A DNA stretch of 64,000 bases from Streptomyces sp. T12 (GTDB taxonomy: Bacteria; Actinomycetota; Actinomycetes; Streptomycetales; Streptomycetaceae). Positions within the stretch are counted from its first letter, which is position 1; each line of letters begins with the position of its first letter. Location of the stretch: the NCBI RefSeq assembly GCF_028736035.1, contig NZ_CP117866.1, positions 372,001 through 436,000 of the forward strand, written 5' to 3'. Below are positions 37,518 through 56,747 of this stretch, one piece after another. A program made the position numbers and the translations under genes. The notes beneath the pieces are model-generated. The model searched no databases. It was not told the DNA's origin and saw nothing but the letters and a program-made list of their open reading frames with translations.

Positions 37518-38126
37518 TCAGGGTGTGATGACGCCCAGCAGGGCGCGGGCGCACAGGTCGCGCACCTGCTCCCGGGAGAGGTCCGAGCCTCTCAGCCACT
37601 CCAGGCAGACGGCCGTGGTGAACGCCAGCCAGCCCCGCACGGCGAGCCCGGCATCGGGCCGCAGCTCGAAGACCGGGCCGAACTCGGGGTCCGCCGCCAT
37701 GGCCGCGAGGATCTGCTTCTCCTGTGCGGCCAGGGCCTGTTGGTAGACCTTGCGCACGGCCTGGTCGCCGGCCGCGTCGGCGCGGTGGAAGGCGCGGAAT
37801 CCATGCGCGTGGGCTTCGACGTACTCCAGATACGCGTCGAGACCCGCGGCGAGCTGCTCGCGCACCGGGGCTCCGGGCACGGCGGCCGTCATGCGCAGCA
37901 TGCGCTCGCTCTCCCGCTCGACGACGGCCGCGAAGAATTCCCGCTTGTTCGGAAAGTAGTGGTAGAGCAGCCCGCGTGAGACACCGGCGATCTCGGCGAC
38001 CTGCTCGATCCACACGTCGTCGTACGGGCTCTCCGAGAACAGCCGCGCCCCGACCGCGAGGAGCTGCTCTCGGCGTTTCTCGGTGCTGAGCCGGCGGCGG
38101 GTGCGCTCGCCCTGGTTCGCGGCCAT
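37518..38126 (-). CDS. TetR family regulator, probable repressor of the divergent P450
   Basis: 202 residues. N-terminal helix-turn-helix: STEKRREQLLAVGARLFSESPYDDVWIEQVAEIAGVSRGLLYHYFPNKREFFAAVV, the classic TetR pattern. The C-terminal ligand domain has FRAFHRADAAGDQAVRKVYQQAL. It is divergent from a CYP102-type P450 and the shared promoter region contains two copies of one operator-like motif. The layout parallels Bm3R1 with P450 BM3 in Bacillus, in which fatty acids release the repressor. Confidence 0.9.
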   Translation of the reverse strand: MAANQGERTRRRLSTEKRREQLLAVGARLFSESPYDDVWIEQVAEIAGVSRGLLYHYFPNKREFFAAVVERESERMLRMTAAVPGAPVREQLAAGLDAYLEYVEAHAHGFRAFHRADAAGDQAVRKVYQQALAAQEKQILAAMAADPEFGPVFELRPDAGLAVRGWLAFTTAVCLEWLRGSDLSREQVRDLCARALLGVITP

Positions 38127-38191: not shown

Positions 38192-38246
38192 ACAAATAGC
38201 TCGCATGAACAGCTCAACGTGCCGCTGGATCGAGGGAGATCGCGTC

Positions 38247-39788
38247 ATGGCGGAGACAGTGACCGGGACCGGACTTCCCCACGGGACCGGACTTCCCAAG
38301 GGGTTCCGCAGCGCCGAGCAGGGCTGGCCGGAGCTGTCCCGCATACCCCGTCCCCCGCACCGGCTCCCGCTGCTCGGCGACGTGCTCGGCGCCAGCCGGC
38401 GTACGCCGCTGCAGGACTCCCTGCGGTACGCCCGTGAGTTGGGGCCGATCTTCCGGCGCAGGGCGTTCAACAGGGAGTTCGTGTTCGTCTGGGGCGCCGG
38501 ACTCGCGGCCGACATGGCGGACGAGGCGCGCTTCGCCAAGCACGTGGGACTCGGCATAGCCAATCTGCGCCCGGTCGTCGGGGACGGTCTGTTCACGGCG
38601 TACAACCACGAGCCGAACTGGCAGCTGGCGCACGACGTCCTGGCGCCGGGGTTCAGCCGGGAGGCCATGGCGGGCTACCACCCGATGATGCTGGCCGTGG
38701 CCGACCGGCTCATGGACCACTGGGACCGCGAGGCGGCTGCGGGCCGGGCGGTGGACGTGCCCGGCGACATGACCAAGCTGACCCTGGAGACCATCGCGCG
38801 CACCGGGTTCGGGCACGACTTCGGCTCCTTCGAGCGGGCCCGCCCCCATCCCTTCGTGACGGCGATGGTCGGCACGCTCACCTACGCGCAGCGGCTCAAC
38901 ACCGTGCCGACGCCGTTCCTGCTGCGGCGTGCCGCGCGCCGCAACCAGGCCGACATCGCCTACCTCAACCGCACGGTGGACGACCTGGTCCGCGCCCGTA
39001 CGGCGAGCGGGCCCGGGGACGGGGATCTACTGGACCGGATGCTGCAGACGGTCCACCCGGAGACGGGCGAGCGGCTCTCCGCACGCAATGTCCGCCGTCA
39101 GGTGATCACGTTCCTGGTGGCCGGCCACGAGACCACCTCGGGCGCGCTCTCCTTCGCCCTGCACTATCTCTCCCGGCACCCGGACGTCGCCGAGCGCGCC
39201 CGTGCCGAGGTGGACCGCGTCTGGGGCGACACGGCGGTGCCCGGCTACGACCAGGTGGCGAGGCTGCGGTATGTGCGCCGGATCCTCGACGAGTCGCTGC
39301 GCCTGTGGCCGACGGCGCCCGCCTTCGCCCGGGAGGCGCGCGAGGACACGGTGCTCGGCGGGGTCCATCCGATGCGGCGCGGTGCGTGGGCGCTGGTGCT
39401 CACGGCGATGCTGCACCGCGATCCCGAGGTCTGGGGCGCGGACGCCGAGCGGTTCGATCCGGATCGCTTCGATCCGAAGGCCGTACGGACGCGTCCGCCG
39501 CACACCTTCAAGCCGTTCGGCACGGGGGCGCGGGCCTGCATCGGGCGCCAGTTCGCGCTGCACGAGGCCACGCTGGTGCTGGGGCTGCTGCTGCGCCGCT
39601 ACGAGTTCGGGAGCGACCCGGCCTATCGGCTGCGGGTGACGGAGCGGCTGACGTTGATGCCGGAGGGGTTGCGGCTGCGCCTGGAGCGGCGGGCGGCCGG
39701 GACTCCGGTTACGGCACAGGCCTCCTCCGGGACCGCCGAGGACGTGCCCTCAGAGCTCCGCTGTCCAGTGCACAGGCCGGCTGACTGA
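38247..39788 (+). CDS. CYP102B-like P450, haem domain only
   Basis: 513 residues from ATG 38247, with GGGAG nine bases upstream; the frame is open to 38205. Strongly similar to the P450 part of the CYP102 fusion at 26-29 kb (shared blocks [75 protein letters not shown]), with normal AGHETT, ExxR (DESLRLWP) and haem-thiolate motifs. The reductase part is missing: the chain stops soon after residue 485. It resembles the stand-alone CYP102B1 known from S. coelicolor and must use external electron carriers. Fatty acid hydroxylation is likely. Confidence 0.92.
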
Positions 39789-44061: not shown

Positions 44062-45084
44062 TCAGCGGGCCGAGAGACTGGACCGCCGGACCACCAGCTC
44101 CGGCTGGAGGACGACCCGCCGGTGCTCGTGCTTCCTCGTCGCGGTCTCCTCCTCCGTCTCCTCCAGCAGGATCTCCGCCGCGAGAGTGCCCATGGTGACC
44201 GCGGGCTGCCGTACGGAGGTGAGGGGCACGGCCGCGGCGGCCGCGAACTCGATGTCGTCGTAGCCGACGATCGCGAGGTCGTCGGGGACGCCGACGCCCG
44301 CGGCGTACATGGCCTGCAGGACGCCGAGGGCGAGCAGGTCGTTGGCGCAGAAGACGGCGGTCGGGCGCTCGGCGAGGCCGAGCAGGCGGGCGCCGGCGTC
44401 CCGGCCGGCGGCGACGTCGAGCCGCTCGGTGGGCAGCTCGCGCAGGTGCTCGGGGCCGAGGCCGGCCTCCTGAAGCGCGTGCAGGGCGCCGGTGCGGCGG
44501 TCGCGGACCTGGTTGAGGCCGGGCGGGCCGCTGACGTACGCGATGGAGCGGTGCCCGGCGTCGACGAGATGGCGTACGGCGAGGGCGCCGCCCGCGACGT
44601 CGTCGACGGAGACCGAGCACTCGGTGGTGCCCTCGGCGACCCGGTCGACGAGGACGAAGGGGATGTTGTGCCGCCGGAACGTCTCGATGTTGCGGCCGGT
44701 GGCGTCGGCCGGGGTGAGCAGGACACCGCGCACCCGCTGCTCGGCGAAGAGCGACAGGTACTCGGCCTCCTCGCTCGCGCTCTGTGCGCTGTTGCAGACC
44801 ATCACGCCGAGCCCGGCCTCACGCGCGGCCCGCTCGGCGCCGCGCGCCACGTCGACGAAGAAGGGGTTGCCCATGTCGAGGACGAGCAACCCCATGATCC
44901 GGCTGCGGCCCGCGCGCAGCTGGCGCGCGGACTCGCTGCGGACATAGCCCAGCCGGTCTATCGCGGACTGCACCCGCGCCCGGGTCTCGGTCGCGACCGT
45001 GTCCGGACGGTTGATGACGTTCGAGACCGTGCCGACGGAGACTCCGGCGGCGCGGGCGACGTCCTTGATACCCACCGACTGGGT
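44062..45084 (-). CDS. rhaR: LacI family regulator of the rhamnose cluster
   Basis: 340 residues from ATG 45084, GGAGG ten bases before. LacI helix-turn-helix and hinge: IKDVARAAGVSVGTVSNVINRPDTVATETRARVQSAIDRLGYVRSESARQLRAGRS, followed by a periplasmic-binding-protein-like sensor domain (MGLLVLDMGNPFFVDVARGAERAA, LVDRVAEGTTECSVSVDDVAGG). It is the last gene of the minus-strand rhamnose arm. The divergent rha promoters carry LacI-type palindromes (TGAA-n4-TTCA), its expected operators; L-rhamnose or a derivative is the likely inducer. Confidence 0.9.
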   Translation of the reverse strand, partial: TQSVGIKDVARAAGVSVGTVSNVINRPDTVATETRARVQSAIDRLGYVRSESARQLRAGRSRIMGLLVLDMGNPFFVDVARGAERAAREAGLGVMVCNSAQSASEEAEYLSLFAEQRVRGVLLTPADATGRNIETFRRHNIPFVLVDRVAEGTTECSVSVDDVAGGALAVRHLVDAGHRSIAYVSGPPGLNQVRDRRTGALHALQEAGLGPEHLRELPTERLDVAAGRDAGARLLGLAERPTAVFCANDLLALGVLQAMYAAGVGVPDDLAIVGYDDIEFAAAAAVPLTSVRQPAVTMGTLAAEILLEETEEETATRKHEHRRVVLQPELVVRRSSLSAR

Positions 45085-45171
45085 CATCGGGCAGGGACCT
45101 CCAGTAAGACGCGACAAGACGTGGGGCGGCGGGAAGGCACATTACCGTCAAGCCGCCCACAACAGCTGTGG

Positions 45172-46602
45172 TCAGGCGGGCAGGCGGAAGTTGAGGTTGC
45201 GCAGCGCCGAGGGCGTCGTACCGCTGGACTTCTCCTGGTACATGATCGACAGGAAGTTGTCCTGTGCGATGCGCGTCTCATCGATGACGACCTCGCCGAA
45301 GGCGTTCAGCCCGGCCGTGACGCCGTCGTACAGGACCGACCAGTCCGTGTAACCGGAGGCCTTGGAGGCCCCGGCGATCCGGCAGAACGGGAAGATCGCG
45401 TACGCGTTGTCGTACTTGTCCAGGATCAGCTTGGTGCGCTGACTGGAGTTCAGCGGGACCGGTATCTCGGTCTTCTGCCAGGCGCCGGAGGAGTTCTTGC
45501 GGACGTGGAAGGCGCGGCCGTTGGCCGTGCGGTCGGCGACGTAGTTCGTGGTGCACTGGCCGAAGCGGCCCGGCACGTAACTGATGATCGCGTGCGGCAG
45601 GCCCGCGGAGTCGGTGAACTGGCTCTCCTGGTTCATCAGGGAGTGGTCCGGGTTGAGCGCGTCGATCACCAGGCCGCTGTCGGTGACGGCGACCTTGTCG
45701 GAGCCGCCGGTGGTGCCGACGACGGTGCCGGCGTTGTTGCGCCAGGTGCGGCCGCGGTCGTCGGAGTAGACGTAGCCGGTGTCGTGGTTGGTGATGCCGC
45801 CGCCGTTGCACATCACGGCGCCGTTCTGCTCGCGCCAGGTGAAGAAGGAGTGCAGTCGGCCGTTCTTGTCGTAGTCGATGCCGTGCAGGTACATGTTGCG
45901 AGCGGTCGACGAGCCGTGCTCGCTGGTGTACGTCCCGGTGGAGCTGCTCCACTCACCCAGGTTGGTCCAGGTCGAACCGTCGTACTCGGCGAGGGCGTTG
46001 CGCCCGTTGCCGGAGATGGCGACCCGGTAGCTGAGCTGCAGCTTGCCGTCGGGGGTGGAGATGAACTGCGGGTAGGTGAACTGCGAGGTGAGCGCGAGGC
46101 CGTCGAGGGTGGACTGCGGGGCACCGAAGCGGCTCGCGGTCCAGCTCAGGCCCGCGGGGTTGTCCACCAGCCCCGCGACCGACTTGACGTAGGTGAAGCC
46201 GTCGCTGTGCGAGTCCATGTTGAGGTGCAGGCGGCCGTCGACCTTGGACACGCCCATGGAGATGACGTTGTGGGAGTCGTTGTAGCGGAGCGTGTGCCCG
46301 ACCTTGACCGTGGACCAGGTGCTGGAGCCGAGCACGCGGCGGCCGACGACGGCGTTGCGGTCGGCCGTGTACCAGACGGCGTACTGGTAGCCCTTGTAGG
46401 TCAGCAGGCCGTTCTTCTGGAACGAGTTGTTGTTGACCAGACCGTCGTACGACACGAAGAAGATGGCCTGCGTGTCGAGTGTGGTGGTGCCGGTCAGGGT
46501 GAGGGACGGGCCGGGGTCGGCGGCACGGGCGGTTCCGGACGCGAGGGCGGGGGTCATGACGGCTCCAGCGAGGGCGGCGCCCAGCAGCGTACGTCTCTTC
46601 AT
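45172..46602 (-). CDS. Secreted BNR_4 beta-propeller protein, candidate rhamnoside/uronide lyase
   Basis: 476 residues. Twin-arginine-like signal (MKRRTLLGAALAGAVMTPALASGTARA). The mature part has the BNR_4 pattern: FFVSYDGLVNNNSFQKNGLLTYKGYQYAVWY, YNDSHNVISMGVSKVDGRLHLNMDSHSDGFTYVKS, then QFTYPQFISTPDGKLQLSYR and WREQNGAVMCNGGGITNHDTGYVYSDDRGRTW, consistent with a seven-bladed propeller. This fold is shared by several polysaccharide lyases, including L-rhamnose-alpha-1,4-glucuronate lyase (PL42) and ulvan lyases. Its place inside the rhamnose uptake operon suggests that it releases rhamnose or rhamnosyl units outside the cell. The activity is inference. Confidence 0.85.
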   Translation of the reverse strand: MKRRTLLGAALAGAVMTPALASGTARAADPGPSLTLTGTTTLDTQAIFFVSYDGLVNNNSFQKNGLLTYKGYQYAVWYTADRNAVVGRRVLGSSTWSTVKVGHTLRYNDSHNVISMGVSKVDGRLHLNMDSHSDGFTYVKSVAGLVDNPAGLSWTASRFGAPQSTLDGLALTSQFTYPQFISTPDGKLQLSYRVAISGNGRNALAEYDGSTWTNLGEWSSSTGTYTSEHGSSTARNMYLHGIDYDKNGRLHSFFTWREQNGAVMCNGGGITNHDTGYVYSDDRGRTWRNNAGTVVGTTGGSDKVAVTDSGLVIDALNPDHSLMNQESQFTDSAGLPHAIISYVPGRFGQCTTNYVADRTANGRAFHVRKNSSGAWQKTEIPVPLNSSQRTKLILDKYDNAYAIFPFCRIAGASKASGYTDWSVLYDGVTAGLNAFGEVVIDETRIAQDNFLSIMYQEKSSGTTPSALRNLNFRLPA

Positions 46603-46671: not shown

Positions 46672-46992
46672 TCAGGCGAGGTGGAACACCTCGGTGAGCG
46701 GTTTCATGGCCTCGTCAGGCCGGGCGCCGTCCAACGACTCGAAGAACGGCGCCATCTCCGCCTGCCAGCGGGCGTTGACGTCGGTGGCTTCCATACCGGC
46801 TACGGCGGCCGCGAAGTCCTCGGTCTCCAGGTAGCCGACGAGCAGTCCGTCCTCGCGCAGGAAGAGCGAGTAGTTGTGCCAGCCGGTGGCCGAGAGCGCT
46901 TGGAGCATCTCGGGCCACACGGCGGCATGCCGCTCGCGGTACTCCTCGAGGCGCTCCGCCCGGACCTTCAGCAGGAAGCACACGCGTTGCAT
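46672..46992 (-). CDS. rhaM: L-rhamnose mutarotase
   Basis: 106 residues, the family's normal size. Ferredoxin-like alpha/beta barrel with the signature MQRVCFLLKVRAERLEEYRERHAAVWPEML, then GWHNYSLFLREDGLLVGYLE and MAPFFESLDG. Catalyses the alpha/beta interconversion of L-rhamnopyranose so that the isomerase gets its preferred anomer. Placed between the binding-protein gene and the BNR_4 gene. Confidence 0.95.
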   Translation of the reverse strand: MQRVCFLLKVRAERLEEYRERHAAVWPEMLQALSATGWHNYSLFLREDGLLVGYLETEDFAAAVAGMEATDVNARWQAEMAPFFESLDGARPDEAMKPLTEVFHLA

Positions 46993-47009
46993 CAACAACC
47001 CTCCGGATC

Positions 47010-48089
47010 TCAGAAGTTGAACTGGTCGATGTTCTTCGCGTCGAAGACGGTCGGCTTGCCGAGGCTGATCACGCCGTCCTTGCCGATGGTGTACGTGGTG
47101 TCGCCGGCCTTGAAGGTCTCGCCCTCCTTGCCGGTGATCTGGCCGGAGACCAGGGCGACGGCGGCGCGGGCGGCCAGGTCGCCGAGCTTCGCCGGGTCCC
47201 ACAGCTCGAAGCCCTCGACCGTGCCGTTCTTGACGTACTTGCGCATGTCGTTCGGGGTGCCGAGGCCGGTCAGCTTGACCTTGCCCTTGTACTTGGAGCC
47301 CGACAGGTACTGGGCGGCGGCCTTGATGCCGACGGTGGTCGGGGAGATGATCCCCTTCAGGTTCGGGTACTCCTGGAGCAGGCCCTGGGTCTGCTGGAAG
47401 GACTTCTGGGCGTCGTCGTCACCGTAGGCGACCTTGACGAGCTTGATGTCCTTGTACTTGGGGTCCTTGAGCTCCTGCTTCATGAAGTCGATCCAGATGT
47501 TCTGGTTCGTCGCGGTCTGCGCGGCGGACAGGATCGCGATCTCGCCCTTGTAGCCGATCTGCTCGGCGAGCAGCTGCACCTCGGTGCGGCCGAGGTCCTC
47601 GGCGGATGCCTGCGAGACGAAGGCGTTGCGGCAGTCGGCGGTGGTGTCGGAGTCGTAGGTGACGACCTTGATGCCGTTCTTCATGGCCTGCTTCAGCGCG
47701 GTGCACAGGGCGCCCGGGTCCTGCGCGGAGACGGCCATCGCGTCGACCTGCTGCTGGGTGAGCGTGTTGACGTAGGAGACCTGGCCGGCGGTGTCGGTGG
47801 CGCTGGACGGGCCGACCTCCTTGTAGCTGGAGCCCAGCTCCTTCAGGGCCGCCTCGCCGCCCTTGTCCGCGGAGGTGAAGTACGGGTTGTTGACCTGCTT
47901 GGGCAGGAAGCCGACGGTCAGCCCCTTCTTCAGCTCGGCGTTCGGGTCGGCCTTCCCGGCGGAGGCGGCCGAGGCGCCCTCGCTCTTGACGTCCTCCTTG
48001 GTGGTACCGCCGCAGGCGGTGGCGGCCAGGGCGAACGAGGTGACGGCGGCGAGGGCCGCGCAGGTACGGCGGAGGGATGACTTGCGCAT
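47010..48089 (-). CDS. rhaS: Rhamnose ABC transporter substrate-binding lipoprotein
   Basis: 359 residues. Signal peptide with lipobox-like ATAC at residue 26 (ALAATAC). Periplasmic-binding family 4 (sugar, LsrB/RhaS-like): LTVGFLPKQVNNPYFTSADKGGEAALKELG, then YVNTLTQQQVDAMAVSAQDPGALC and GIKVVTYDSDTT. It presents L-rhamnose to the two permeases. Lies between the second permease gene and rhaM, with 17-30-base gaps, so one operon. Confidence 0.94.
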   Translation of the reverse strand: MRKSSLRRTCAALAAVTSFALAATACGGTTKEDVKSEGASAASAGKADPNAELKKGLTVGFLPKQVNNPYFTSADKGGEAALKELGSSYKEVGPSSATDTAGQVSYVNTLTQQQVDAMAVSAQDPGALCTALKQAMKNGIKVVTYDSDTTADCRNAFVSQASAEDLGRTEVQLLAEQIGYKGEIAILSAAQTATNQNIWIDFMKQELKDPKYKDIKLVKVAYGDDDAQKSFQQTQGLLQEYPNLKGIISPTTVGIKAAAQYLSGSKYKGKVKLTGLGTPNDMRKYVKNGTVEGFELWDPAKLGDLAARAAVALVSGQITGKEGETFKAGDTTYTIGKDGVISLGKPTVFDAKNIDQFNF

Positions 48090-48119: not shown

Positions 48120-49112
48120 TTACGAGGCCGGAGTCGAGGCGGCTTTGCGGCCCGCCCTCGCTACGGAGATCTGCCGTGCGACCCGGGGGCCGAGCACGGA
48201 GAGGACCAGCAGGACGCCGGTGACGACGATCTGCGACTGGGCGGAGACGTCCTGGAGGCTCATCACGTTCTGCAGCGCGCCGAGCAGGAAGACTCCCGCG
48301 ATCGCGCCGCCGAGCGTGCCCTTGCCGCCGTCGAAGTCGATGCCGCCCAGCAAGACGGCTGCCACGACGGAGAGTTCGAGCCCCGTGGCGTTGTCGTAGC
48401 GGGCGCTGGCGAAGTGCAGCGCCCAGAAGATCCCGGTGAGCGAGGCCATCAGGCCCGTCACCGTGAACAGGATCAGCTTCTGCCGCTTGACCCGGATACC
48501 GGCGAACCTCGCGGCCTCCTCGCTCGCGCCGGTCGCGAAGACCGACCGCCCGAACGGGGTGGCGTGCAGGACGATCACGGCGATCGCGAGGAGCACCAGG
48601 AAGGGCAGGAAGGCGTACGGGATGAAGGTGTCGCCGATGTGTCCGGAGGCGAAGTCGAGGTACTGCGTGGGGAAGTCGGTCACCGCGTCGGAGCCGAGGA
48701 TGATCTGTGCGATGCCGCGGTAGGCGGCGAGGGTGCCGATGGTGACGGCGAGCGACGGGAGCCCCAGCTTGGTCACCAGAAGGCCGTTGATCAGTCCGCA
48801 GACCACGCCGAGCGCCAGACAGATCGGAATGATCGTCTCGATCGCCATGCCCTGGTTCCACAGGACACCCATGACCGAGCCCGACAGACCGGCTGTGGAG
48901 GCGACCGAGAGATCGATCTCGCCCGAGACGACCAGGAGCGTCATGGGCAGGGCGATCATTGCGATCGGAAGGGTGTTTCCGATCAGGAACGACAGGTTGA
49001 GAGCGTTCCCGAAACCATCGACCGTTCCGAAGGACAGCAGGAGCACGACGATCAGAAGCGCACCGACGACCGTGTCCCAGCGGATCGCTCGGCTCAGCGA
49101 GAAGTCAGCCAT
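48120..49112 (-). CDS. rhaQ: Rhamnose ABC transporter permease
   Basis: 330 residues, about nine to ten helices. BPD_transp_2 (RbsC/RhaP-RhaQ) family: LPMTLLVVSGEIDLSVASTAGLSGSVMGVLW and RFAGIRVKRQKLILFTVTGLMASLTGIFW, with the cytoplasmic EAA-like loop GASEEAARFAGI. Pairs with the preceding permease; the start overlaps the previous gene by eight bases. Confidence 0.93.
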   Translation of the reverse strand: MADFSLSRAIRWDTVVGALLIVVLLLSFGTVDGFGNALNLSFLIGNTLPIAMIALPMTLLVVSGEIDLSVASTAGLSGSVMGVLWNQGMAIETIIPICLALGVVCGLINGLLVTKLGLPSLAVTIGTLAAYRGIAQIILGSDAVTDFPTQYLDFASGHIGDTFIPYAFLPFLVLLAIAVIVLHATPFGRSVFATGASEEAARFAGIRVKRQKLILFTVTGLMASLTGIFWALHFASARYDNATGLELSVVAAVLLGGIDFDGGKGTLGGAIAGVFLLGALQNVMSLQDVSAQSQIVVTGVLLVLSVLGPRVARQISVARAGRKAASTPAS

Positions 49113-50145
49113 GGCGGGCGTTCCTCTTCTTCAGGGCGGTGGCCACGCGCAGCGCGACGATCCGGTCGACCGCGATGGCGAGGATGAGCAGGATGCCGTT
49201 GATGGCGAGCACCCAGACGGAGCTGACGCCGAGGGCGGGCAGCACGCTGTTGATGGAGGTCAGCAGCAGCGCGCCGAGCGCCGCGCCGTAGACGCTGCCG
49301 GAGCCGCCGGTGAAGACGACACCACCGACCACGACCGCGCTGACGACGGTGAGTTCGTAGCCGCTGCCCGTGCTGGAGTCGACGTTGCCGAACCGGGCCA
49401 GGTACATGGCGCCCGCGAGTCCGGCCAGCGCACCGCAGAAGGTGTACGCGGCGAGGATCCGCTTGCGCACCGGGATGCCGGCGAGGCGGGCGGCCTCCGG
49501 GTTGGAGCCGAGCGCGTACAGCTCGCGTCCGCTGCCGAAGTGCTTGAGGTAGTACGCGGTCGCCACCAGGACGGCGACGGCGATCAGCGCCAGCCACGGC
49601 ACCGCGGAGATGCCGCCGGAGCCGAAGTCGACGAAGCCGTCCGGGAGGTCGGCCGCCGTGATCTGCCGGGCGCCGACCCAGATCGAGTCGATGCCGCGGA
49701 TGATGTACAGCGTGCCCAGGGTGACGACGAGCGCGGGCACCTGGCCGAGGCTGACGAGCAGGCCGTTCAGCAGGCCGAAGCCGATGCCCATCAGGACCGC
49801 CAGGAGTACGGCGACGACCGGGTTCCCGCCGCCCTGGAGATACGTACCGGCGGCGAAGGCGCTGATGCCGAGGGTGGAGCCGACCGACAGGTCGACGTTC
49901 CTCGTGATCACCACCAGGGACTGGCCGGTGGCGACCAGGACGAGGATCGTCGCGTTCAGGAGCAGGTCCTTGATGCCCTGCTCGGTGAGGAACTCGCTGT
50001 TGCCGAGCTGGGTGACGACGATCATCACCACGAAGACGACCAGGATGGCGAGTTCGCGCATCTTGAAGACGCGGTCGACCAGGCGGGTGCCGCTGGACTT
50101 CGGTACGTCGGTGACAGGGGCCTCCTTGGGAGTGATCACCGTCAT
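49105..50145 (-). CDS. rhaP: Rhamnose ABC transporter permease
   Basis: 346 residues from ATG 50145, which overlaps the ATPase stop by four bases. Same BPD_transp_2 family: [34 protein letters not shown] and [40 protein letters not shown]. An N-terminal cytoplasmic extension of about 30 residues precedes the first helix. Forms the channel with RhaQ. Confidence 0.93.
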
Positions 50146-51659
50146 GCGGCGGCCCTCCCGGTTGCTGCGGCCATCACGGTTTCCTCGGTGGCGTCGGAGC
50201 GCGGGATCTCGGCGGTCAGGCGGCCCTCGTGCATCACGAGCACGCGGTCGGCCATGCCGAGGATCTCGGGCAGGTCGGAGGAGATCATCAGGACGGCCAC
50301 GCCGTCGGCGGCGAGCTCGCTGAGCAGCCGGTGCACCTCGGCCTTGGTGCCGACGTCGATGCCCCGGGTGGGTTCGTCGACGATCAGTACCTTGGGGCCG
50401 GTGGCGAGCCACTTGGCGAGGACGACCTTCTGCTGGTTGCCGCCGGACAGGGTGTTCACCGTGTCGGCGATCCGGGCGTACTTCACCTGGAGCTTGACGG
50501 CCCAGTCGAGGGACCGGCTGCGTTCGGCGCCGCGGTCCATCAACCCCGCCTTGACGGTCGTACGAAGTCCCGTGAGGCCGATGTTGCGCTCGATGGACAT
50601 GTCCATCACCAGACCCTGGGCGCGCCGGTCCTCGGGGACGAGGGCGAGGCCGGACGCCATGGCGGTGGACGGGGCGCCGTTGGTCAGGGCCTTGCCGTCG
50701 ACGCAGACCTCGCCGGCGTCCCAGCGGTCGATGCCGAAGACGGCCCGCGCGACTTCGGTGCGCCCCGCGCCGACGAGCCCGGCGAGGCCGACGATCTCAC
50801 CGCGTCGTACGTCGAAGGAGACGTCGGTGAAGACGCCCTCACGGGTCAGCCGGCGCACGCTCAGGGCGACCTCGCCCGGCTTCACGTCCTGCTTGGGGTA
50901 CAGCTCGTCGAGGTCGCGGCCGACCATCCGGCGTACGAGGTCGTCCTCGGTCATGCCGTCCAGCGGCTCGCTGGCGATCCAGGCGCCGTCGCGCAGGGTC
51001 GTGACCCGCCGGCAGATCTGGAAGATCTCCTCCAGCCGGTGGGAGATGAAGAGGACGGCGGCGCCCTGTTCGCGCAGGGCGCGGACGACCCCGAAGAGGC
51101 GGGCGACCTCGCTGCCGGTGAGGGCGGCGGTCGGCTCGTCCATGATCAGGACGCGGGCGTCGAAGGAGAGCGCCTTGGCGATCTCGACGATCTGCTGGTC
51201 GGCGATGGACAGGCCGCGCGCGGGGCGGTCGGGGTCGAGCTCGACGCCGAGGCGCTGCATCAGGGCCAGGGTCGCGGCGTGCGTGGCCTTGTGGTCGATC
51301 CGGCCGAGCGCGCGCTGCGGCTGGCGGCCCATGAAGATGTTCTCGGCGATCGACAGGTCGGGGAAGAGAGTCGGCTCCTGGTAGATCACGGCGATCCCGG
51401 CGTCGCGGGCGTCACCGGGGCCGTGGAAGACGACGGGCGCACCGTCGAGCAGCACCTGGCCCGCGTCGGGCCGGTGTACGCCGGCGAGCGTCTTGATGAG
51501 GGTCGACTTGCCCGCGCCGTTCTCACCGGCGAGGGCGTGCACCTCCCCGGGGAACAGCTCCAGGGAGACGTCCCGCAGGGCGCGGACCGCGCCGAAGGAC
51601 TTGGAGATGTCCTTGAGCGCCAGAACCGGGGCCGGACCCGTTTTGGACGGGTGGGTCAT
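50142..51659 (-). CDS. rhaT: Rhamnose ABC transporter ATPase, two nucleotide-binding domains
   Basis: 505 residues; GAGGAG before ATG 51659. RbsA/MglA-type double ATPase: first domain with Walker [10 protein letters not shown] (45-53) and Walker [13 protein letters not shown]; second domain with [16 protein letters not shown] in the A-loop position, signature [36 protein letters not shown]. Energises uptake of L-rhamnose. First gene of the minus-strand arm, directly after the rha operator region. Confidence 0.94.
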
Positions 51660-51703: not shown

Positions 51704-51715
51704 TGAAAGGTTTCA
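51704..51715 (-). promoter_or_regulatory. LacI-type operator O1 of the rha importer arm
   Basis: TGAAAGGTTTCA, palindromic in its TGAA/TTCA arms. It lies just downstream of the predicted minus-strand start point and upstream of the ATPase gene, so a bound repressor would block elongation. Confidence 0.7.
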
Positions 51716-51729
51716 ACTTGGTTGCCGGG

Positions 51730-51759
51730 ACGTTAGGCACGGAGCGCATGTCACGTCAA
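51730..51759 (-). promoter_or_regulatory. Promoter of the rha importer arm
   Basis: On the minus strand, -35 TTGACG (51759-51754) and -10 TAACGT (51735-51730) are separated by 18 bp. The start point would fall near 51723, just before operator O1. Confidence 0.6.
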
Positions 51760-51769
51760 TGGGTCCGTG

Positions 51770-51784
51770 TCGAAAAAGTTTCGA
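51770..51784. promoter_or_regulatory. Middle palindrome O2 between the rha arms
   Basis: TCGAAA-AAG-TTTCGA, perfect 6-bp arms around three bases, placed between the two divergent promoters. Its odd-length centre differs from the other two sites, so it could bind the same LacI protein less well or a different regulator. Confidence 0.5.
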
Positions 51785-51833: not shown

Positions 51834-51881
51834 TTGACACCCCTTCGAGGGACTCATACGTTCCCGTCTTGAATCGTTTCA
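51834..51881 (+). promoter_or_regulatory. Promoter and LacI operator O3 of the rha catabolic arm
   Basis: -35 TTGACA (51834-51839) and -10 TACGTT (51857-51862), 17 bp apart, close to the major vegetative consensus. The palindrome TGAATCGTTTCA (51870-51881), with the CG centre typical of LacI sites, covers the expected start point at about 51869. Repressor binding would directly occlude initiation. Confidence 0.75.
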
Positions 51882-51933: not shown

Positions 51934-53094
51934 GTGACCGAGCTCGCCGCGGTGAAGGCCGCACTCAAGACCCAGGCAGTCGAAACGCCGTCGTGGGCGT
52001 ACGGGAACTCGGGGACGCGGTTCAAGGTGTTCGCCCAGCAGGGCGTTCCGCGTACGCCGTGGGAGAAGCTGGACGACGCCGCTCAGGTGCACGCGTTCAC
52101 GGGTGTCGCGCCGACCGTTGCCCTGCACATTCCGTGGGACAAGGTCGACGACTACGCGGCGCTGGCCAAGCACGCCGAAGAGCGTGGCGTGAAGCTGGGC
52201 GCGATCAACTCCAACACCTTCCAGGACGACGACTACAAGCTGGGCAGCATCTGCCATCCCGACGCGGTGGTGCGGCGCAAGGCCGTGGACCATCTGCTGG
52301 AGTGCGTCGACATCATGGACGCCACGGGGTCGCGGGATCTGAAGCTGTGGTTCGCGGACGGCACGAACTACCCCGGGCAGGACGACATCCGGGCTCGGCA
52401 GGACCGGCTGGCCGAGGGCCTCTCGCAGGTGTACGAGCGGCTGGGCGAAGGGCAGCGGATGCTGCTGGAGTACAAGTTCTTCGAGCCGGCGTTCTACACG
52501 ACGGACGTGCCGGACTGGGGGACGGCGTATGCGCACTGCCTGAAGCTCGGGGAGAAGGCCCAGGTCGTGGTCGACACCGGGCACCACGCGCCCGGGACCA
52601 ACATCGAGTTCATCGTCGCGACGCTGCTGCGGGAGGGGAAGCTCGGAGGGTTCGACTTCAACTCCCGGTTCTATGCGGATGACGACCTGATGGTGGGCGC
52701 CGCGGACCCGTTCCAGCTGTTCCGGATCATGTACGAGGTCGTGCGTGGGGGTGGGTTCTCTCCCGAGGTCGCGTTCATGCTCGACCAGTGCCACAACATC
52801 GAGGCGAAGATCCCGGCGATCATCCGGTCGGTGATGAACGTGCAGGAGGCCACGGCGAAGGCGCTCCTCGTGGACGGGGACGCGCTGAGTGCTGCCCAGC
52901 AGGCCGGGGATGTGCTCAGTGCGAATGCCGTGGTGATGGACGCGTACAACACGGATGTGCGGCCGTTGCTTGCCGAGGTGCGGGAGGAGATGGGGCTCGA
53001 CGCCGACCCCATTGCTGCGTACCGCCGGTCCGGGTGGGCCGAGAAGATCGTGGCTGAGCGGGTCGGTGGGGAGCAGGCCGGTTGGGGGGCCTGA
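51934..53094 (+). CDS. rhaI: L-rhamnose isomerase
   Basis: 386 residues from GTG 51934. TIM-barrel sugar isomerase of the RhaI type: [87 protein letters not shown] and [15 protein letters not shown], which include the metal-binding Glu, Asp and His residues. Converts L-rhamnose to L-rhamnulose. First gene of the catabolic arm. Confidence 0.96.
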
Positions 53095-53247: not shown

Positions 53248-55287
53248 ATGGCAACCCATCCCGAAGCCGCCGCCCTCCTCGCCCGTTCCCATCGGCTCGG
53301 CTCCGACCCCCGCAACACCAACTACGCCGGCGGAAACGCCTCCGCCAAGGGCACCGACACCGACCCCGTCACCGGTGGTGACGTCGAGCTGATGTGGGTC
53401 AAGGGGTCCGGTGGTGATCTCGGGACGCTCACCGAGGCCGGGCTGGCCGTGCTGCGGCTGGACCGTATGCGGGCGCTCGTCGACGTCTATCCCGGCGTCG
53501 AGCGCGAGGACGAGATGGTCGCCGCCTTCGACTACTGCCTGCACGGCAAGGGCGGGGCCGCTCCCTCCATCGACACCGCCATGCACGGGCTCGTCGAGGC
53601 CGCGCACGTCGATCATCTGCACCCCGACTCCGGCATCGCGCTCGCCTGTGCCGCCGACGGCGAGAAGCTGACCGCCGAGTGTTTCGGTGACACCGTGGTG
53701 TGGGTGCCGTGGCGGCGGCCCGGGTTCCAGCTGGGGCTCGACATCGCCGCGGTCAAGGACGCCAACCCGCAGGCGATCGGGTGCATCCTCGGCGGGCACG
53801 GCATCACCGCCTGGGGCGACACCTCCGAGGAGTGCGAGCGCAACTCGCTGCACATCATCCGCACCGCCGAGGCGTTTCTCGCCGAGCGCGGGAAGCCGGA
53901 GCCCTTCGGGCCGGTGATCGAGGGGTACGCGGCGCTCGGCGCCGTCGAGCGGCGGGAGCGGGCCGCGGCGCTGGCGCCGGTCATCCGCAGCATCGCCTCC
54001 CAGGACCGGCCGCAGGTCGGTCACTTCACCGACTCCGAGGTCGTCCTCGACTTCCTCGCGAGCGCCGAGCACCCGCGCCTCGCGGCCCTGGGCACCTCGT
54101 GCCCGGACCACTTCCTGCGGACCAAGGTCCGGCCGCTCGTCCTCGACCTGCCGCCCACCGCTCCCCTCGACGAGGCCGTCGCCCGGCTCAAGGAGCTGCA
54201 CGCCGAGTACCGCGAGGAGTACGCCGCCTACTACCGGCGGCACGCGCTGCCCGACTCCCCCGCCATGCGCGGCGCCGACCCGGCGATCGTGCTGATCCCG
54301 GGGGTCGGCATGTTCAGCTTCGGCAAGGACAAGCAGACCGCCCGGGTCGCGGGTGAGTTCTATGTCAACGCCATCAATGTGATGCGGGGGGCGGAGGCTG
54401 TCTCGGCCTACGCGCCCATCGAGGAGTCGGAGAAGTTCCGTATCGAGTACTGGGCGCTGGAGGAGGCCAAGCTTCAGCGGATGCCTAAGCCCAAGCCGCT
54501 CGCGACGCGGGTCGCGCTCGTGACCGGCGCGGGCAGCGGGATCGGGAAGGCCATCGCGCAGCGGCTCGTCGCCGAGGGCGCGTGTGTGGTCGTCGCCGAT
54601 CTCAACGCCGAGAACGCCCAGGCCGTCGCCGAGGAGCTCGGCGGGTCCGACAAGGCCGTCGCGGTGACGGTCGACGTCACGTCCGAGGAGCAGATCGCCG
54701 AGGCCTTCAAGGCGGCGGTGCTGGCCTTCGGCGGGGTCGATCTGGTGGTCAACAACGCCGGTATCTCCATCTCCAAGCCGCTGCTGGAGACCTCGGCGAA
54801 GGACTGGGACCTGCAGCACGACATCATGGCGCGCGGTTCCTTCCTCGTGTCGCGGGAGGCGGCGCGCGTGATGATCGCTCAGCAGCTGGGCGGTGACATC
54901 GTCTACATCGCCTCGAAGAACGCCGTCTTCGCCGGACCCAACAACATCGCCTACTCCGCCACCAAGGCCGACCAGGCCCATCAAGTGCGGCTGCTCGCCG
55001 CCGAGTTGGGCGAGCACGCCATCCGCGTCAACGGGATCAACCCGGACGGCGTGGTACGTGGGTCCGGGATCTTCGCCGGTGGCTGGGGGGCCAAGCGGGC
55101 CGCCGTGTACGGGGTGGAGGAGGAGAAGTTGGGCGAGTTCTACGCCCAGCGGACCATCCTCAAGCGCGAGGTGCTCCCCGACCATGTCGCGAACGCCGTC
55201 TTCGCCCTCACCGGCGGGGACCTGACCCACACCACGGGACTGCACATCCCGGTCGACGCCGGCGTCGCGGCCGCCTTCCTGCGGTGA
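53248..55287 (+). CDS. rhaED: Bifunctional rhamnulose-1-phosphate aldolase / L-lactaldehyde dehydrogenase
   Basis: 679 residues. Residues 1-405: class II aldolase/adducin domain with zinc ligands in HVDHLHPDSG (His123, His125). Residues from about 419: SDR domain with VALVTGAGSGIGKAIAQRL, NNAGISI and YSATKADQ (Tyr-x3-Lys). The aldolase splits L-rhamnulose 1-phosphate into DHAP and L-lactaldehyde; the fused dehydrogenase oxidises the lactaldehyde to L-lactate. The AAGGA ribosome site follows the intergenic repeat. The stop overlaps the kinase start by four bases. Confidence 0.95.
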   Translation: MATHPEAAALLARSHRLGSDPRNTNYAGGNASAKGTDTDPVTGGDVELMWVKGSGGDLGTLTEAGLAVLRLDRMRALVDVYPGVEREDEMVAAFDYCLHGKGGAAPSIDTAMHGLVEAAHVDHLHPDSGIALACAADGEKLTAECFGDTVVWVPWRRPGFQLGLDIAAVKDANPQAIGCILGGHGITAWGDTSEECERNSLHIIRTAEAFLAERGKPEPFGPVIEGYAALGAVERRERAAALAPVIRSIASQDRPQVGHFTDSEVVLDFLASAEHPRLAALGTSCPDHFLRTKVRPLVLDLPPTAPLDEAVARLKELHAEYREEYAAYYRRHALPDSPAMRGADPAIVLIPGVGMFSFGKDKQTARVAGEFYVNAINVMRGAEAVSAYAPIEESEKFRIEYWALEEAKLQRMPKPKPLATRVALVTGAGSGIGKAIAQRLVAEGACVVVADLNAENAQAVAEELGGSDKAVAVTVDVTSEEQIAEAFKAAVLAFGGVDLVVNNAGISISKPLLETSAKDWDLQHDIMARGSFLVSREAARVMIAQQLGGDIVYIASKNAVFAGPNNIAYSATKADQAHQVRLLAAELGEHAIRVNGINPDGVVRGSGIFAGGWGAKRAAVYGVEEEKLGEFYAQRTILKREVLPDHVANAVFALTGGDLTHTTGLHIPVDAGVAAAFLR

Positions 55288-56747
55288 GCGCGGCCGTGAA
55301 GTCGTACGCCGCGGTCGACCTGGGCGCCTCCAGCGGGCGCGTCATGGTCGGCCGCGTCGGCCCCGACAGCCTGGAGCTGACCGAAGCGCACCGCTTCCGG
55401 AACCGGCCCGTGCGGGTGCCCGAAGGGCTGCGCTGGGATGTCCTCGCCCTGTACGCGGGGGTGCTGGAGGGGCTGCGGGCGGCCGGTGCCCACGGCGGTG
55501 GACGACTCGACTCCGTCGGCATCGACAGCTGGGCCGTGGACTACGGGCTGTTGGACGCCGACGGGGCACTGCTCGGCAATCCCGTGCACTACCGCGACTC
55601 CCGGACCGAGGGCGTCGCGGAGAAGGTGTGGGCGACCGTCCCGGCGGCGGAGTTGTACGCCGCCACCGGGTTGCAGTACGCGCCCTTCAACACCCTGTAC
55701 CAGCTGGCCGCCGCCCGGTCCTCGGCCCAACTGCCGTATGCCAAGCGGCTGTTGCTCATCCCCGACCTGCTGGCGTACTGGCTCACCGGCGAGCAGGGCA
55801 CCGAGCTCACCAACGCCTCCACCACCCAGCTGATCGACCCGCGGACGCGGGACTGGTCTTACGACATCGCCTCCCGGCTGGGCATCGACCTGGGCCTGTT
55901 CGCACCGCTCAGGCGACCCGGCGATCCCGCGGGGCTGCTGCGCGGCGAGGTGCTGGAGGAGACCGGGCTGAGCGGTCCGGTGCCGGTGACGGCGGTCGGG
56001 TCGCACGACACCGCGTCCGCCGTGGCCGCCGTCCCGGCCGAGGGCGAGCGGTTCGCGTACATCTGCACCGGCACCTGGTCGCTGGCGGGCCTCGAGCTGG
56101 GCGCCCCCGTGCTCACCGAGGAGAGCCGGGCCGCGAACTTCACCAACGAGCTGGGGCTGGACGGCACGGTCCGGTATCTGCGGAACATCATGGGGCTGTG
56201 GCTGCTCCAGGAGTGCGTACGGGCGTGGGGCGAACCCGATCTGGGCGGGCTGCTGCTCGACGCGTCCAAGGTGCCGGCGCTGCGGTCGGTCGTGGACGCG
56301 GGGGACGCGGCGTTCCTGGCGCCGGGGCGGATGCCGGAGCGGATCGCCGAGGCGTGCCGTGCCTCGGGGCAGCCGGTGCCCGCATCGCCCGCCGAGATCA
56401 CGCGCTGCATCCTCGACTCGCTCGCCCTCGCCCACCGCAGGGCGATCGCCGAGGCACAGCGGCTGGCCGACCATCCGGTCGACGTCGTGCACGTCGTCGG
56501 GGGCGGCACGCGCAACGCTCTGCTGTGCCAGCTGACCGCCGACGCCTGCGGGCTTCCGGTGGTGGCCGGCCCGACCGAGGCCGCCGCCCTCGGAAACGTC
56601 CTGGTCCAGGCACGGACCCACGGGCTGGTCGGCGACCTTGCCGACGGGCGGCGACTGCTCACCCGTACGCAGCCGTTGACCCGGTACGAGCCGCGGGGGG
56701 ACGCGGCGCGCTGGAGCGAGGCGGAGGCCCGGCTCACCCGAGGGTGA
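55284..56747 (+). CDS. rhaK: Rhamnulokinase
   Basis: 487 residues from GTG 55284 (GTGA overlap). FGGY-family carbohydrate kinase: YAAVDLGASSGRVMVGRV in the N-terminal ATPase fold, SVGIDSWAVDYGLLD with the catalytic Asp, ICTGTWSLAGLE and HVVGGGTRNALLCQLTADACGLPVVAGPTEAAALGN. Phosphorylates L-rhamnulose to L-rhamnulose 1-phosphate for the neighbouring aldolase. The gene order isomerase-aldolase-kinase and coupled starts indicate one operon. Confidence 0.95.
   Translation: MSAAVKSYAAVDLGASSGRVMVGRVGPDSLELTEAHRFRNRPVRVPEGLRWDVLALYAGVLEGLRAAGAHGGGRLDSVGIDSWAVDYGLLDADGALLGNPVHYRDSRTEGVAEKVWATVPAAELYAATGLQYAPFNTLYQLAAARSSAQLPYAKRLLLIPDLLAYWLTGEQGTELTNASTTQLIDPRTRDWSYDIASRLGIDLGLFAPLRRPGDPAGLLRGEVLEETGLSGPVPVTAVGSHDTASAVAAVPAEGERFAYICTGTWSLAGLELGAPVLTEESRAANFTNELGLDGTVRYLRNIMGLWLLQECVRAWGEPDLGGLLLDASKVPALRSVVDAGDAAFLAPGRMPERIAEACRASGQPVPASPAEITRCILDSLALAHRRAIAEAQRLADHPVDVVHVVGGGTRNALLCQLTADACGLPVVAGPTEAAALGNVLVQARTHGLVGDLADGRRLLTRTQPLTRYEPRGDAARWSEAEARLTRG

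What the first reader, a model, noticed from the sequence alone, without database searches (positions are those of the whole stretch)
45172..46602. Secreted BNR_4 propeller inside the rhamnose operon: candidate rhamnose-releasing lyase
The gene lies between rhaM and the LacI regulator of the rhamnose arm and encodes an exported BNR_4 beta-propeller. That fold is used by L-rhamnose-alpha-1,4-glucuronate lyase (PL42, gum arabic) and by ulvan lyases, both acting on rhamnose-uronate bonds. Genomic placement with the importer suggests that it supplies extracellular rhamnose or rhamnosyl fragments, which would make the locus a complete polymer-to-pyruvate system.
Basis: inference. Interest (0 to 1): 0.72.

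Follow-up and report, generated by a model that had tools for sequence, protein, structure and literature searches.

The report
Rhamnose-cap lyase in Streptomyces rhamnose operon
This Streptomyces gene, set inside the operon that imports and burns the plant sugar rhamnose, very probably encodes a secreted enzyme that snips rhamnose off plant cell-surface glycans, so the cell makes its own rhamnose supply together with the machinery that consumes it.

Summary
Window 45172-46602 (-) encodes a 476-aa, probably exported BNR_4 protein between rhaM and a LacI gene. Its nearest solved relative is FoRham1, the founding PL42 L-rhamnose-alpha-1,4-D-glucuronate lyase (E 6e-26). Of 13 FoRham1 active-site residues named in print, 12 are identical here; the exception, Tyr26 to Phe, is shared with Bacteroides BT3686. 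In 97 actinobacterial sequences the catalytic residues are invariant, while the posterior GH145 position (Tyr here) switches to or from His at least 18 times. In 101 Streptomyces, 28 of 34 close homologues lie within 1 kb of rhaS, same strand. Of 80 named actinobacterial loci, 22 are rha-linked and 21 lie beside GH30 genes related to an endo-beta-1,6-galactanase, pointing to arabinogalactan proteins; 31 show none of the neighbours tested. LacI-type operators lie in the rha divergent promoter; other genomic copies precede a GH78 rhamnosidase and two further genes. Best reading: a secreted PL42 lyase releasing free rhamnose for its own operon's importer. 'Polymer-to-pyruvate' is overstated: only the cap is taken.

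The parts
45172..46602 (-). PL42-type BNR_4 lyase gene, 476 aa, probably exported; predicted catalytic residues D109, H111, H132, Y177, R193, Y238, R257; rhamnose subsite F61, N324, Q325, R389, E437
46672..46992 (-). rhaM, L-rhamnose mutarotase (start inferred; the listed ORF begins at 47202 inside rhaS)
47010..48089 (-). rhaS, rhamnose ABC transporter substrate-binding protein
   Evidence: TIGR02637, 479.8 bits, cut-off 342
48120..49112 (-). ABC permease of the rhamnose importer
   Evidence: PF02653
49105..50130 (-). ABC permease of the rhamnose importer (5' limit approximate)
   Evidence: (PF02653)
50142..51659 (-). ABC ATPase of the rhamnose importer; likely start at 51659, the listed ORF begins at 51749
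   Evidence: PF00005; start read from the sequence
44062..45117 (-). LacI-family regulator, probable RhaR, directly downstream of the lyase gene
   Evidence: LacI-type RhaR of Actinomycetales in PMC3870299 (passages)
51704..51715 (.). LacI-type operator TGAAAGGTTTCA upstream of the importer-lyase operon
51870..51881 (.). LacI-type operator TGAATCGTTTCA upstream of rhaI
51934..53094 (+). rhaI, L-rhamnose isomerase
   Evidence: TIGR02635, 677 bits, cut-off 531
53248..55287 (+). rhaEW, rhamnulose-1-phosphate aldolase / short-chain dehydrogenase
   Evidence: TIGR02632, 1111 bits, cut-off 568
55284..56747 (+). rhaB, rhamnulokinase
   Evidence: TIGR02627, 476 bits, cut-off 528, so under it

Best explanation
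The gene encodes a secreted member of polysaccharide lyase family 42. Outside the cell it binds the alpha-L-rhamnosyl-1,4-D-glucuronate caps of plant arabinogalactan (AGP- or gum-type side chains). Arg193, helped by His132 and Tyr177, neutralises the glucuronate carboxylate; His111, held by Asp109, takes the C5 proton and hands it to the glycosidic oxygen. Beta-elimination then releases free L-rhamnose and leaves a 4,5-unsaturated glucuronate on the chain. The rhamnose enters through the RhaS-type ABC importer of the same operon, is mutarotated by RhaM (the gene before) and degraded by RhaI, RhaB and RhaEW. A LacI repressor encoded by the next gene (RhaR type) is the likely switch at the two operators of the divergent promoter, so the lyase would be induced by the sugar it releases. 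Shown: gene, family, residue conservation, linkage, operator-like sites. Inferred: secretion and its route, activity, substrate, co-transcription, regulation.
For: Closest solved structures are FoRham1 PL42 lyase (E 6e-26), then four Bacteroides GH145-type proteins (2e-16 to 2e-12). 12 of 13 active-site residues named in PMC8377490 and PMC10951650 are identical; in the 262 aligned pairs typed, 10 of 11 site residues match against 36% overall, P 2e-4. In 97 distinct rows, the window's included, 10 of the 13 positions are invariant, S197 and Q325 are 96 of 97, and position 61 is F in 90 and Y in 7. Linkage: 28 of 34 close homologues in 101 Streptomyces lie within 1 kb of a RhaS hit on the same strand; strong BNR_4 with RhaS 31 genomes, BNR_4 alone 2, RhaS alone 24, neither 44 (Fisher P 7.5e-9, not corrected for relatedness). 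The 15 Streptomyces rha loci fetched because they carry it (L026-L040) read rhaM, BNR_4, then LacI, with an isomerase-like gene added before LacI in L034; L043, fetched because it lacks the gene, has rhaM followed by LacI. Of 80 named loci 22 are rha-linked; 11 of these lie outside Streptomyces and have the lyase behind rhaI instead, with rhaEW found after it in 8 of the 11. The rha label changes at least 5 times on the quick tree, 3 of them forced by starred branches (93 rows counted). 21 of the 80 lie beside a GH30 gene; two of these GH30 proteins were tested and both have the S. [quoted passage not shown] none of the 21 is rha-linked. The operator pattern occurs at 5 places in the genome, reversed control 0; the three outside the rha promoter precede a GH78 rhamnosidase gene, a short gene with a Rha78A N-terminal domain and a sugar-binding protein gene.
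Against: No activity data exist and no structure could be predicted. Identity to FoRham1 is modest. Catalytic residues of PL42 are partly shared with PL24 and PL25 ulvan lyases, so they speak for the reaction type better than for the substrate. Bacteroides relatives act through the anterior lyase site on wine AGP but not on gum arabic (PMC8406133, section 7), so the exact cap recognised is open. 31 of 80 named loci show none of the rha, GH30, PL11, GH2, GH78 or GDSL neighbours tested, and no GH78 was found near any of the 80; 19 of 80 have a hit to a PL11 rhamnogalacturonan lyase, some of them partial, so a pectic role in some clades is possible. Invariance is not rare in this family: 111 of 476 columns are at least 98% identical. 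24 of 55 Streptomyces with RhaS do without the gene. A weak terminator-like stem lies between rhaS and rhaM (47000-47016, minus strand; 3 such sites in the 8-kb region against 2.7 expected), so co-transcription is not certain.
Confidence: 0.78

Rival explanations
1. GH145-type retaining alpha-L-rhamnosidase: the propeller hydrolyses Rha-GlcA at the posterior face, as proposed for BT3686.
For: NCBIfam's only hit is the BT3686 alpha-rhamnosidase model, 103.8 bits against a cut-off of 700. 25 of 97 rows have His at the posterior position, 8 of the 38 rha-linked ones among them.
Against: The window protein has Tyr69 there, like FoRham1 Tyr34 (paper PMC8377490). His comes and goes at least 18 times on the quick tree, whereas the anterior lyase site is invariant.
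Confidence: 0.07
2. A lyase of the same chemistry but another substrate: rhamnogalacturonan ends (Rha-1,4-GalA), ulvan-like sulfated rhamnan, or a microbial rhamnosyl-glucuronate exopolysaccharide.
For: PL24/25 share the His-His-Asp set (PMC10951650, abstract and passages). PL11 rhamnogalacturonan lyase hits lie near 19 of 80 homologues, Lentzea above all.
Against: The rhamnose-subsite residues N324, Q325, R389 and E437 match exo-acting FoRham1, which showed no activity on RG-I oligosaccharides and only a trace on ulvan (PMC8377490, Table 1). GH30 neighbours of the endo-beta-1,6-galactanase kind point to arabinogalactan, though none is in the window's own locus.
Confidence: 0.12
3. A catalytically dead or lectin-like propeller that binds rhamnosyl glycans and feeds or senses them for the operon.
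For: PMC8377490 reports lectins as moderately similar in structure to FoRham1.
Against: The residues whose mutation abolished or strongly cut FoRham1 activity (Asp83, His85, His105, Tyr150, Arg166, Tyr202, Arg220) are kept in 97 of 97 rows.
Confidence: 0.03

Closest known systems
FoRham1, L-rhamnose-alpha-1,4-D-glucuronate lyase, Fusarium oxysporum, PL42 (PDB 7ESK-7ESN; PMC8377490, PMC10951650)
   Same: BNR_4 family; Asp83, His85, His105, Tyr150, Arg166, Ser170, Tyr202, Arg220, Asn275, Gln276, Arg331, Glu381 all kept; Tyr, not His, at the GH145 posterior position; export expected here, secretion known for FoRham1.
   Different: Bacterial, in a rhamnose operon; Tyr26 is Phe61; 36% identity over the 262 aligned pairs. 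Substrate untested.
BT3686 / BACCELL_00856 / BACPLE_00338, former GH145 (PMC8406133)
   Same: Same family and anterior lyase residues, Phe at the Tyr26 position (BT3686); release of free rhamnose from wine AGP was shown for these three.
   Different: Farther in sequence (63 bits or less). BT3686 has a posterior His48 that is Tyr here. The B. plebeius member sits in an AGP locus with a GH105 enzyme (PMC8406133), not in a rhamnose import operon.
PL24 and PL25 ulvan lyases (LOR_107, Uly1, PLSV_3936)
   Same: His-His-Asp motif and Arg neutraliser on a seven-bladed propeller (papers).
   Different: Only E 0.02 for Uly1 by profile, no PL25 entry; reported as endo-type ulvan lyases (PMC8377490).
LacI-type RhaR regulons of Actinomycetales (PMC3870299, passages)
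   Same: LacI regulator controlling rha import and catabolism and alpha-L-rhamnosidases; lactate dehydrogenase genes in some.
   Different: The words 'bnr', 'neuraminidase' and 'glucuron' do not occur in its main text (find); its supplements were not seen.

Membership tests
PL42 | BNR_4 domain, seven-bladed propeller | tested here: inconclusive
   BNR_4 met at 4e-80; blade count not seen, structure prediction unavailable
PL42 | Best sequence match among solved structures is FoRham1 | tested here: met
   E 6.4e-26 against 2.3e-16 for BT3686; profile 5.7e-29
PL42 | Base/acid His85 and His-His-Asp triad (Asp83, His105) | tested here: met
   D109, H111, H132; 97 of 97 rows
PL42 | Neutraliser Arg166, with Tyr150, Tyr202, Arg220 | tested here: met
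   R193, Y177, Y238, R257; 97 of 97 rows
PL42 | Rhamnose subsite Tyr26, Asn275, Gln276, Arg331, Glu381 | tested here: met
   F61, N324, Q325, R389, E437: four of five identical; Phe61 as in BT3686 (alignment)
PL42 | Beta-elimination giving rhamnose plus 4,5-unsaturated glucuronate | not testable with these tools
   needs enzyme assay
GH145 (hydrolase sense) | Posterior catalytic His48 | tested here: not met
   Tyr69
GH145 (hydrolase sense) | NCBIfam BT3686 equivalog cut-off 700 bits | tested here: not met
   103.8 bits
PL24 / PL25 ulvan lyase | Significant sequence match to a family structure | tested here: not met
   Uly1 E 0.02, no PL25 entry up to E 10
PL40 | Match to a PL40 profile | not tested
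   no PL40 profile was on hand

The most novel reading that the evidence does not exclude
Across actinobacteria a PL42 lyase has repeatedly been gained or kept inside rhamnose operons, under two different gene orders, so that a rhamnose-induced operon carries its own secreted cap-harvesting enzyme: a main natural rhamnose source of these soil bacteria would be the Rha-GlcA caps of plant arabinogalactan proteins, taken without degrading the polymer. In these proteins the GH145 posterior site would be evolutionary noise and the anterior lyase site the only one that matters.
Probability: 0.42. Interest if true: 0.6.

Novelty: new member of a known kind. Interest (0 to 1): 0.47.

Why it matters
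It gives a testable function to a protein that the records listed name only loosely (such as 'BNR repeat-containing protein', 'hypothetical protein' or 'putative BNR repeat neuraminidase'), ties a whole actinobacterial clade to PL42, and proposes an environmental rhamnose source of Streptomyces. It bears on an open point in the literature: which substrates the anterior lyase site of former GH145 proteins serves beyond sulfated AGPs (PMC8406133 says other substrates remain to be identified). The 97-row comparison argues that the posterior histidine is not what selection keeps in actinobacteria. Practical use: enzymes that remove rhamnose caps from AGPs and gums.

Tried and rejected
Structure prediction was asked for three times and not accepted; the pocket could therefore not be mapped in three dimensions, and the residue map rests on sequence and profile alignment. 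Ulvan lyase as nearest family: rejected on scores. GH145 hydrolase: rejected on Tyr69 and on the flipping of that position. A lyase-only operator: no TGAAWNNTTTCA site lies anywhere in the window outside the rha divergent promoter. Terminators: on the minus strand the scan reported one weak site between rhaS and rhaM (47000-47016) and one inside lacI (44863-44893), none between rhaM and the end of the lyase gene; 3 sites in the region against 2.7 expected. A GH79 rhamnosyl-glucuronidase partner in this genome: no PF16862 match, but no control genome rang either, so this says nothing. Co-occurrence of the galactanase with BNR_4 over the genus: no usable answer twice. The weaker BNR_4 genes of Streptomyces (10 hits, E 5e-36 to 1e-25) are another group: none is near RhaS. 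L069 has RhaS-like and permease-like hits about 7 kb away at 46-56% and was not counted as rha-linked. In the first tree count (6 changes, 4 forced) L008, too short to judge, had been labelled 'not rha'; without L008, L069 and the short loci L105 and L120 the count is 5 and 3. Seven distant BNR_4 loci (L012-L016, L024, L025) fell below the blastp threshold, and the weaker hits L017-L023 were not submitted to it; none of these 14 is in the residue counts.

Papers: PMC8377490 parts 1-4 of 7 and passages; PMC10951650 passages (abstract among them); PMC8406133 section 7 and passages; PMC3870299, PMC12772271, PMC11475409, PMC9120177, PMC8424115, PMC13431644 passages only; PMC13169297 and all others only as search listings with the start of the abstract. 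No supplement was seen. That the operon-lyase link is not in print rests on the searches, which cover open-licence papers only. PL42 is already listed among the CAZyme families of a Streptomyces genome table and named as a secreted family in Lentzea (passages); whether those are the same genes was not checked. Wider facts on RhaM, RhaI and RhaB chemistry, on twin-arginine signals and on the S. violaceusniger species group are recalled.

Full report
The observation. The ORF at 45172-46602 on the minus strand encodes 476 aa with one Pfam domain, BNR_4 (E 4e-80), and an N-terminus that reads as an export signal with two arginines (R3 and R4, invariant in the ten sequences, the window's included; over the wider family a loose RR pattern is found in 34 of 97 rows). 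It is the only BNR_4 match in the 11.46-Mb genome. A divergent rhaI-rhaEW-rhaB arm lies on the other side of the promoter region. The 120 relatives listed are 85-97% identical and those with an organism name are Streptomyces, so the genome is almost certainly a Streptomyces.

What it is. Against all solved structures the best match is FoRham1, the L-rhamnose-alpha-1,4-D-glucuronate lyase on which PL42 was founded (E 6e-26); Bacteroides GH145-type proteins follow at 2e-16 to 2e-12. With a profile of ten Streptomyces sequences the alignment to FoRham1 runs over positions 56-472, and a PL24 ulvan lyase appears only at E 0.02. I mapped the active-site residues that two papers name from crystal, neutron and mutant data (PMC8377490, PMC10951650). 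The chain index is the paper's number plus two, since of the two offsets tried only that one makes the letters agree. Asp83, His85, His105, Tyr150, Arg166, Ser170, Tyr202, Arg220, Asn275, Gln276, Arg331 and Glu381 correspond to D109, H111, H132, Y177, R193, S197, Y238, R257, N324, Q325, R389 and E437; Tyr26 corresponds to F61, as in BT3686. The last two assignments (R389, E437) were read by hand from the profile alignment and are the least certain. For the 11 residues inside the pairwise alignment, 10 identities are expected by chance with P 2e-4 given 36% identity overall.

Lyase or hydrolase. PL42 and GH145 proteins share a fold, but the proposed hydrolase of BT3686 uses His48 on the opposite face. 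Here that position is Tyr69. I submitted 111 loci; 104 gave a BNR_4 reading frame by blastp and seven distant ones did not. With the window and after removing eight re-fetched copies, 97 distinct rows remain. Ten of the thirteen mapped positions are the same in 97 of 97 rows, S197 and Q325 in 96, and position 61 is F in 90 and Y in 7. The posterior position is Y in 68, H in 25, F in 2, E in 1 and A in 1, with at least 18 changes between His and other residues on the quick tree, and it varies also inside the rha-linked group (8 H, 30 Y). Selection thus seems to hold the lyase face and not the hydrolase face. This fits the mBio study that found lyase activity on the anterior face of former GH145 proteins whether or not His48 is present (PMC8406133, section 7). 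A caution: 111 of 476 columns are at least 98% identical, so invariance alone is not special; it is the match to residues known from mutants that counts.

Linkage in Streptomyces. In 101 Streptomyces genomes there are 34 strong BNR_4 hits in 33 genomes. Of these, 28 lie on the same strand with 470-823 bp between the BNR_4 and RhaS domain hits. The other six: three are at contig ends (G050, G073, G085); one lies beside a partial RhaS below the cut-off (G084; row); one is the galactanase-linked paralogue of G099; one is a split copy in G086, which has no RhaS over the cut-off. Strong BNR_4 with RhaS 31 genomes, BNR_4 alone 2, RhaS alone 24, neither 44 (Fisher P 7.5e-9; relatedness is not corrected for). 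None of the ten weaker BNR_4 hits is near RhaS. In the 15 rha loci that I fetched because they carry the gene it stands behind rhaM and before LacI in all; in L034 a sugar-isomerase-like gene is added between, and in the tree clade that holds S. violaceusniger LacI is doubled. In four loci fetched because they lack the gene, LacI follows rhaM (L043) or RhaS with no rhaM hit between (L041, L042, L044).

Linkage elsewhere. A scan of the species-genome collection gave 298 relatives, of which the best 80 were kept. 22 of 80 are in rha operons: 11 Streptomyces and 11 in Prauserella, Kibdelosporangium, Saccharomonospora, Actinophytocola, Actinomadura, Rhodococcus rhodnii and an uncultured Thermomonosporaceae. 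In these 11 the order is different, with the lyase behind rhaI, and rhaEW was found after it in 8, so the link has survived or arisen again under rearrangement. The quick tree needs at least 5 changes of the rha label over the 93 rows that could be judged, 3 of them forced by starred branches; three changes may be one gain and two losses (correcting 6 and 4). Another 21 of 80 lie beside a GH30 gene. Seven of these are 64-100% identical to the G099 gene, whose best solved match is the S. [quoted passage not shown] The other 14, eleven of them in Lentzea, are about 30% identical to it; the one tested has the same best match at E 1e-38. None is both rha- and GH30-linked. In G099 the galactanase and lyase reading frames overlap by four bases. 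The window's genome has its own homologue of this galactanase, far away (67%). [quoted passage not shown] Nineteen of 80 have a PL11 hit, some of them partial, and 31 of 80 show none of the neighbours tested; a pectic or other role in some clades stays open.

Regulation. The promoter region between the importer operon and rhaI holds TGAAAGGTTTCA at 51704-51715 and TGAATCGTTTCA at 51870-51881 (expected 0.02 sites in the window). In the 17 short divergent regions compared (16 relatives and the window) the second site is present in 17 and the first in 15; in the two others (L038, L043) the stretch that I cut out begins after its place (the three long-spacer loci L028, L032, L034 were not compared). 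The pattern TGAAWSSTTTCA occurs at five places in the whole genome against none for the reversed control. The three others lie just upstream of a GH78 alpha-L-rhamnosidase gene with a signal-like start (L132), of a 351-aa frame in which Pfam finds a Rha78A N-terminal domain but no catalytic domain (L133), and of an ABC sugar-binding protein gene (L131). This agrees with the LacI-type RhaR regulon of Actinomycetales, which includes rhamnosidases and a transporter (PMC3870299, passages). The lyase gene has no such site of its own, so it most likely shares the importer's promoter and operator; that is inference, and a weak terminator-like stem between rhaS and rhaM is a point against simple co-transcription.

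How it would work. Cap recognised outside the cell; carboxylate neutralised by Arg193, His132 and Tyr177; His111 as base then acid; free rhamnose and an unsaturated uronate end as products (mechanism as for FoRham1, PMC10951650, passages). Rhamnose is imported, mutarotated and split to dihydroxyacetone phosphate and lactate (pathway recalled; RhaEW and the lactate dehydrogenase link in PMC3870299). The chain left behind seems not to be used by this locus: the only GH88/105-like match of the genome is weak and far off, and the single KduI match is also far off. So this is rhamnose-cap harvesting rather than polymer degradation.

Verdict. Ordinary in family, informative in context. The enzyme is a new member of PL42 with a strong and, as far as my searches show, undescribed place in the actinobacterial rhamnose regulon (open-licence papers only). 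PL42 is already listed as a family in Streptomyces and Lentzea genome papers (passages). Biochemistry and structure remain to be done.

Noticed in passing
L045:3719-6675 (G099:C358); also L055-L059, L093, L098: A BNR_4 paralogue (55% to the window's) overlaps by four bases with a gene whose best solved match is a secreted endo-beta-1,6-galactanase (24td, E 4e-217); similar neighbours occur in Saccharothrix, another Streptomyces and Amycolatopsis.
   Followed up: partly
L128:11440-12882, L034:13234-14679, also L086, L090, L091, L097, L100, L112, L123: A sugar-isomerase-like gene (weak arabinose-isomerase C-terminal and sulfoquinovose-isomerase matches) occurs in 9 of the 99 fetched loci searched and not in the window; all 9 are rha operons with the lyase. 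Function unknown; possible partner.
   Followed up: partly
L071:11214-14177, L068:6054-9791, L063-L077: In Lentzea the lyase homologue often sits in a cluster with a distant GH30, a GH2 beta-galactosidase-like protein, a PL11 rhamnogalacturonan lyase and GDSL esterases.
   Followed up: partly
L132:3710-3721, L133:3610-3621, L131:3325-3336 (own genome): Three further exact operator copies outside the window, before a GH78 rhamnosidase gene, a short Rha78A-type gene and an ABC sugar-binding protein gene.
   Followed up: yes
window 51770-51784: A third inverted repeat, TCGAAA-N3-TTTCGA, lies between the two operators; a copy with at most two mismatches was found in 9 of the 17 divergent regions (window included). 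Its role is unknown.
   Followed up: no
L028, L032, L116, L117, L118, L121, L124, L126, L129: Streptomyces of the clade that holds S. violaceusniger carry two LacI genes (72-75% to the window's) behind the lyase, in tandem or nearly so.
   Followed up: no
G086:C12:37461-38404: A BNR_4 gene with matches on opposite strands (split) in a genome without RhaS over the cut-off; consistent with decay once the operon is gone. Described only.
   Followed up: no
window 38205-39788 and 37518-38126: By eye, a cytochrome P450 next to a divergent TetR-type regulator; not searched.
   Followed up: no
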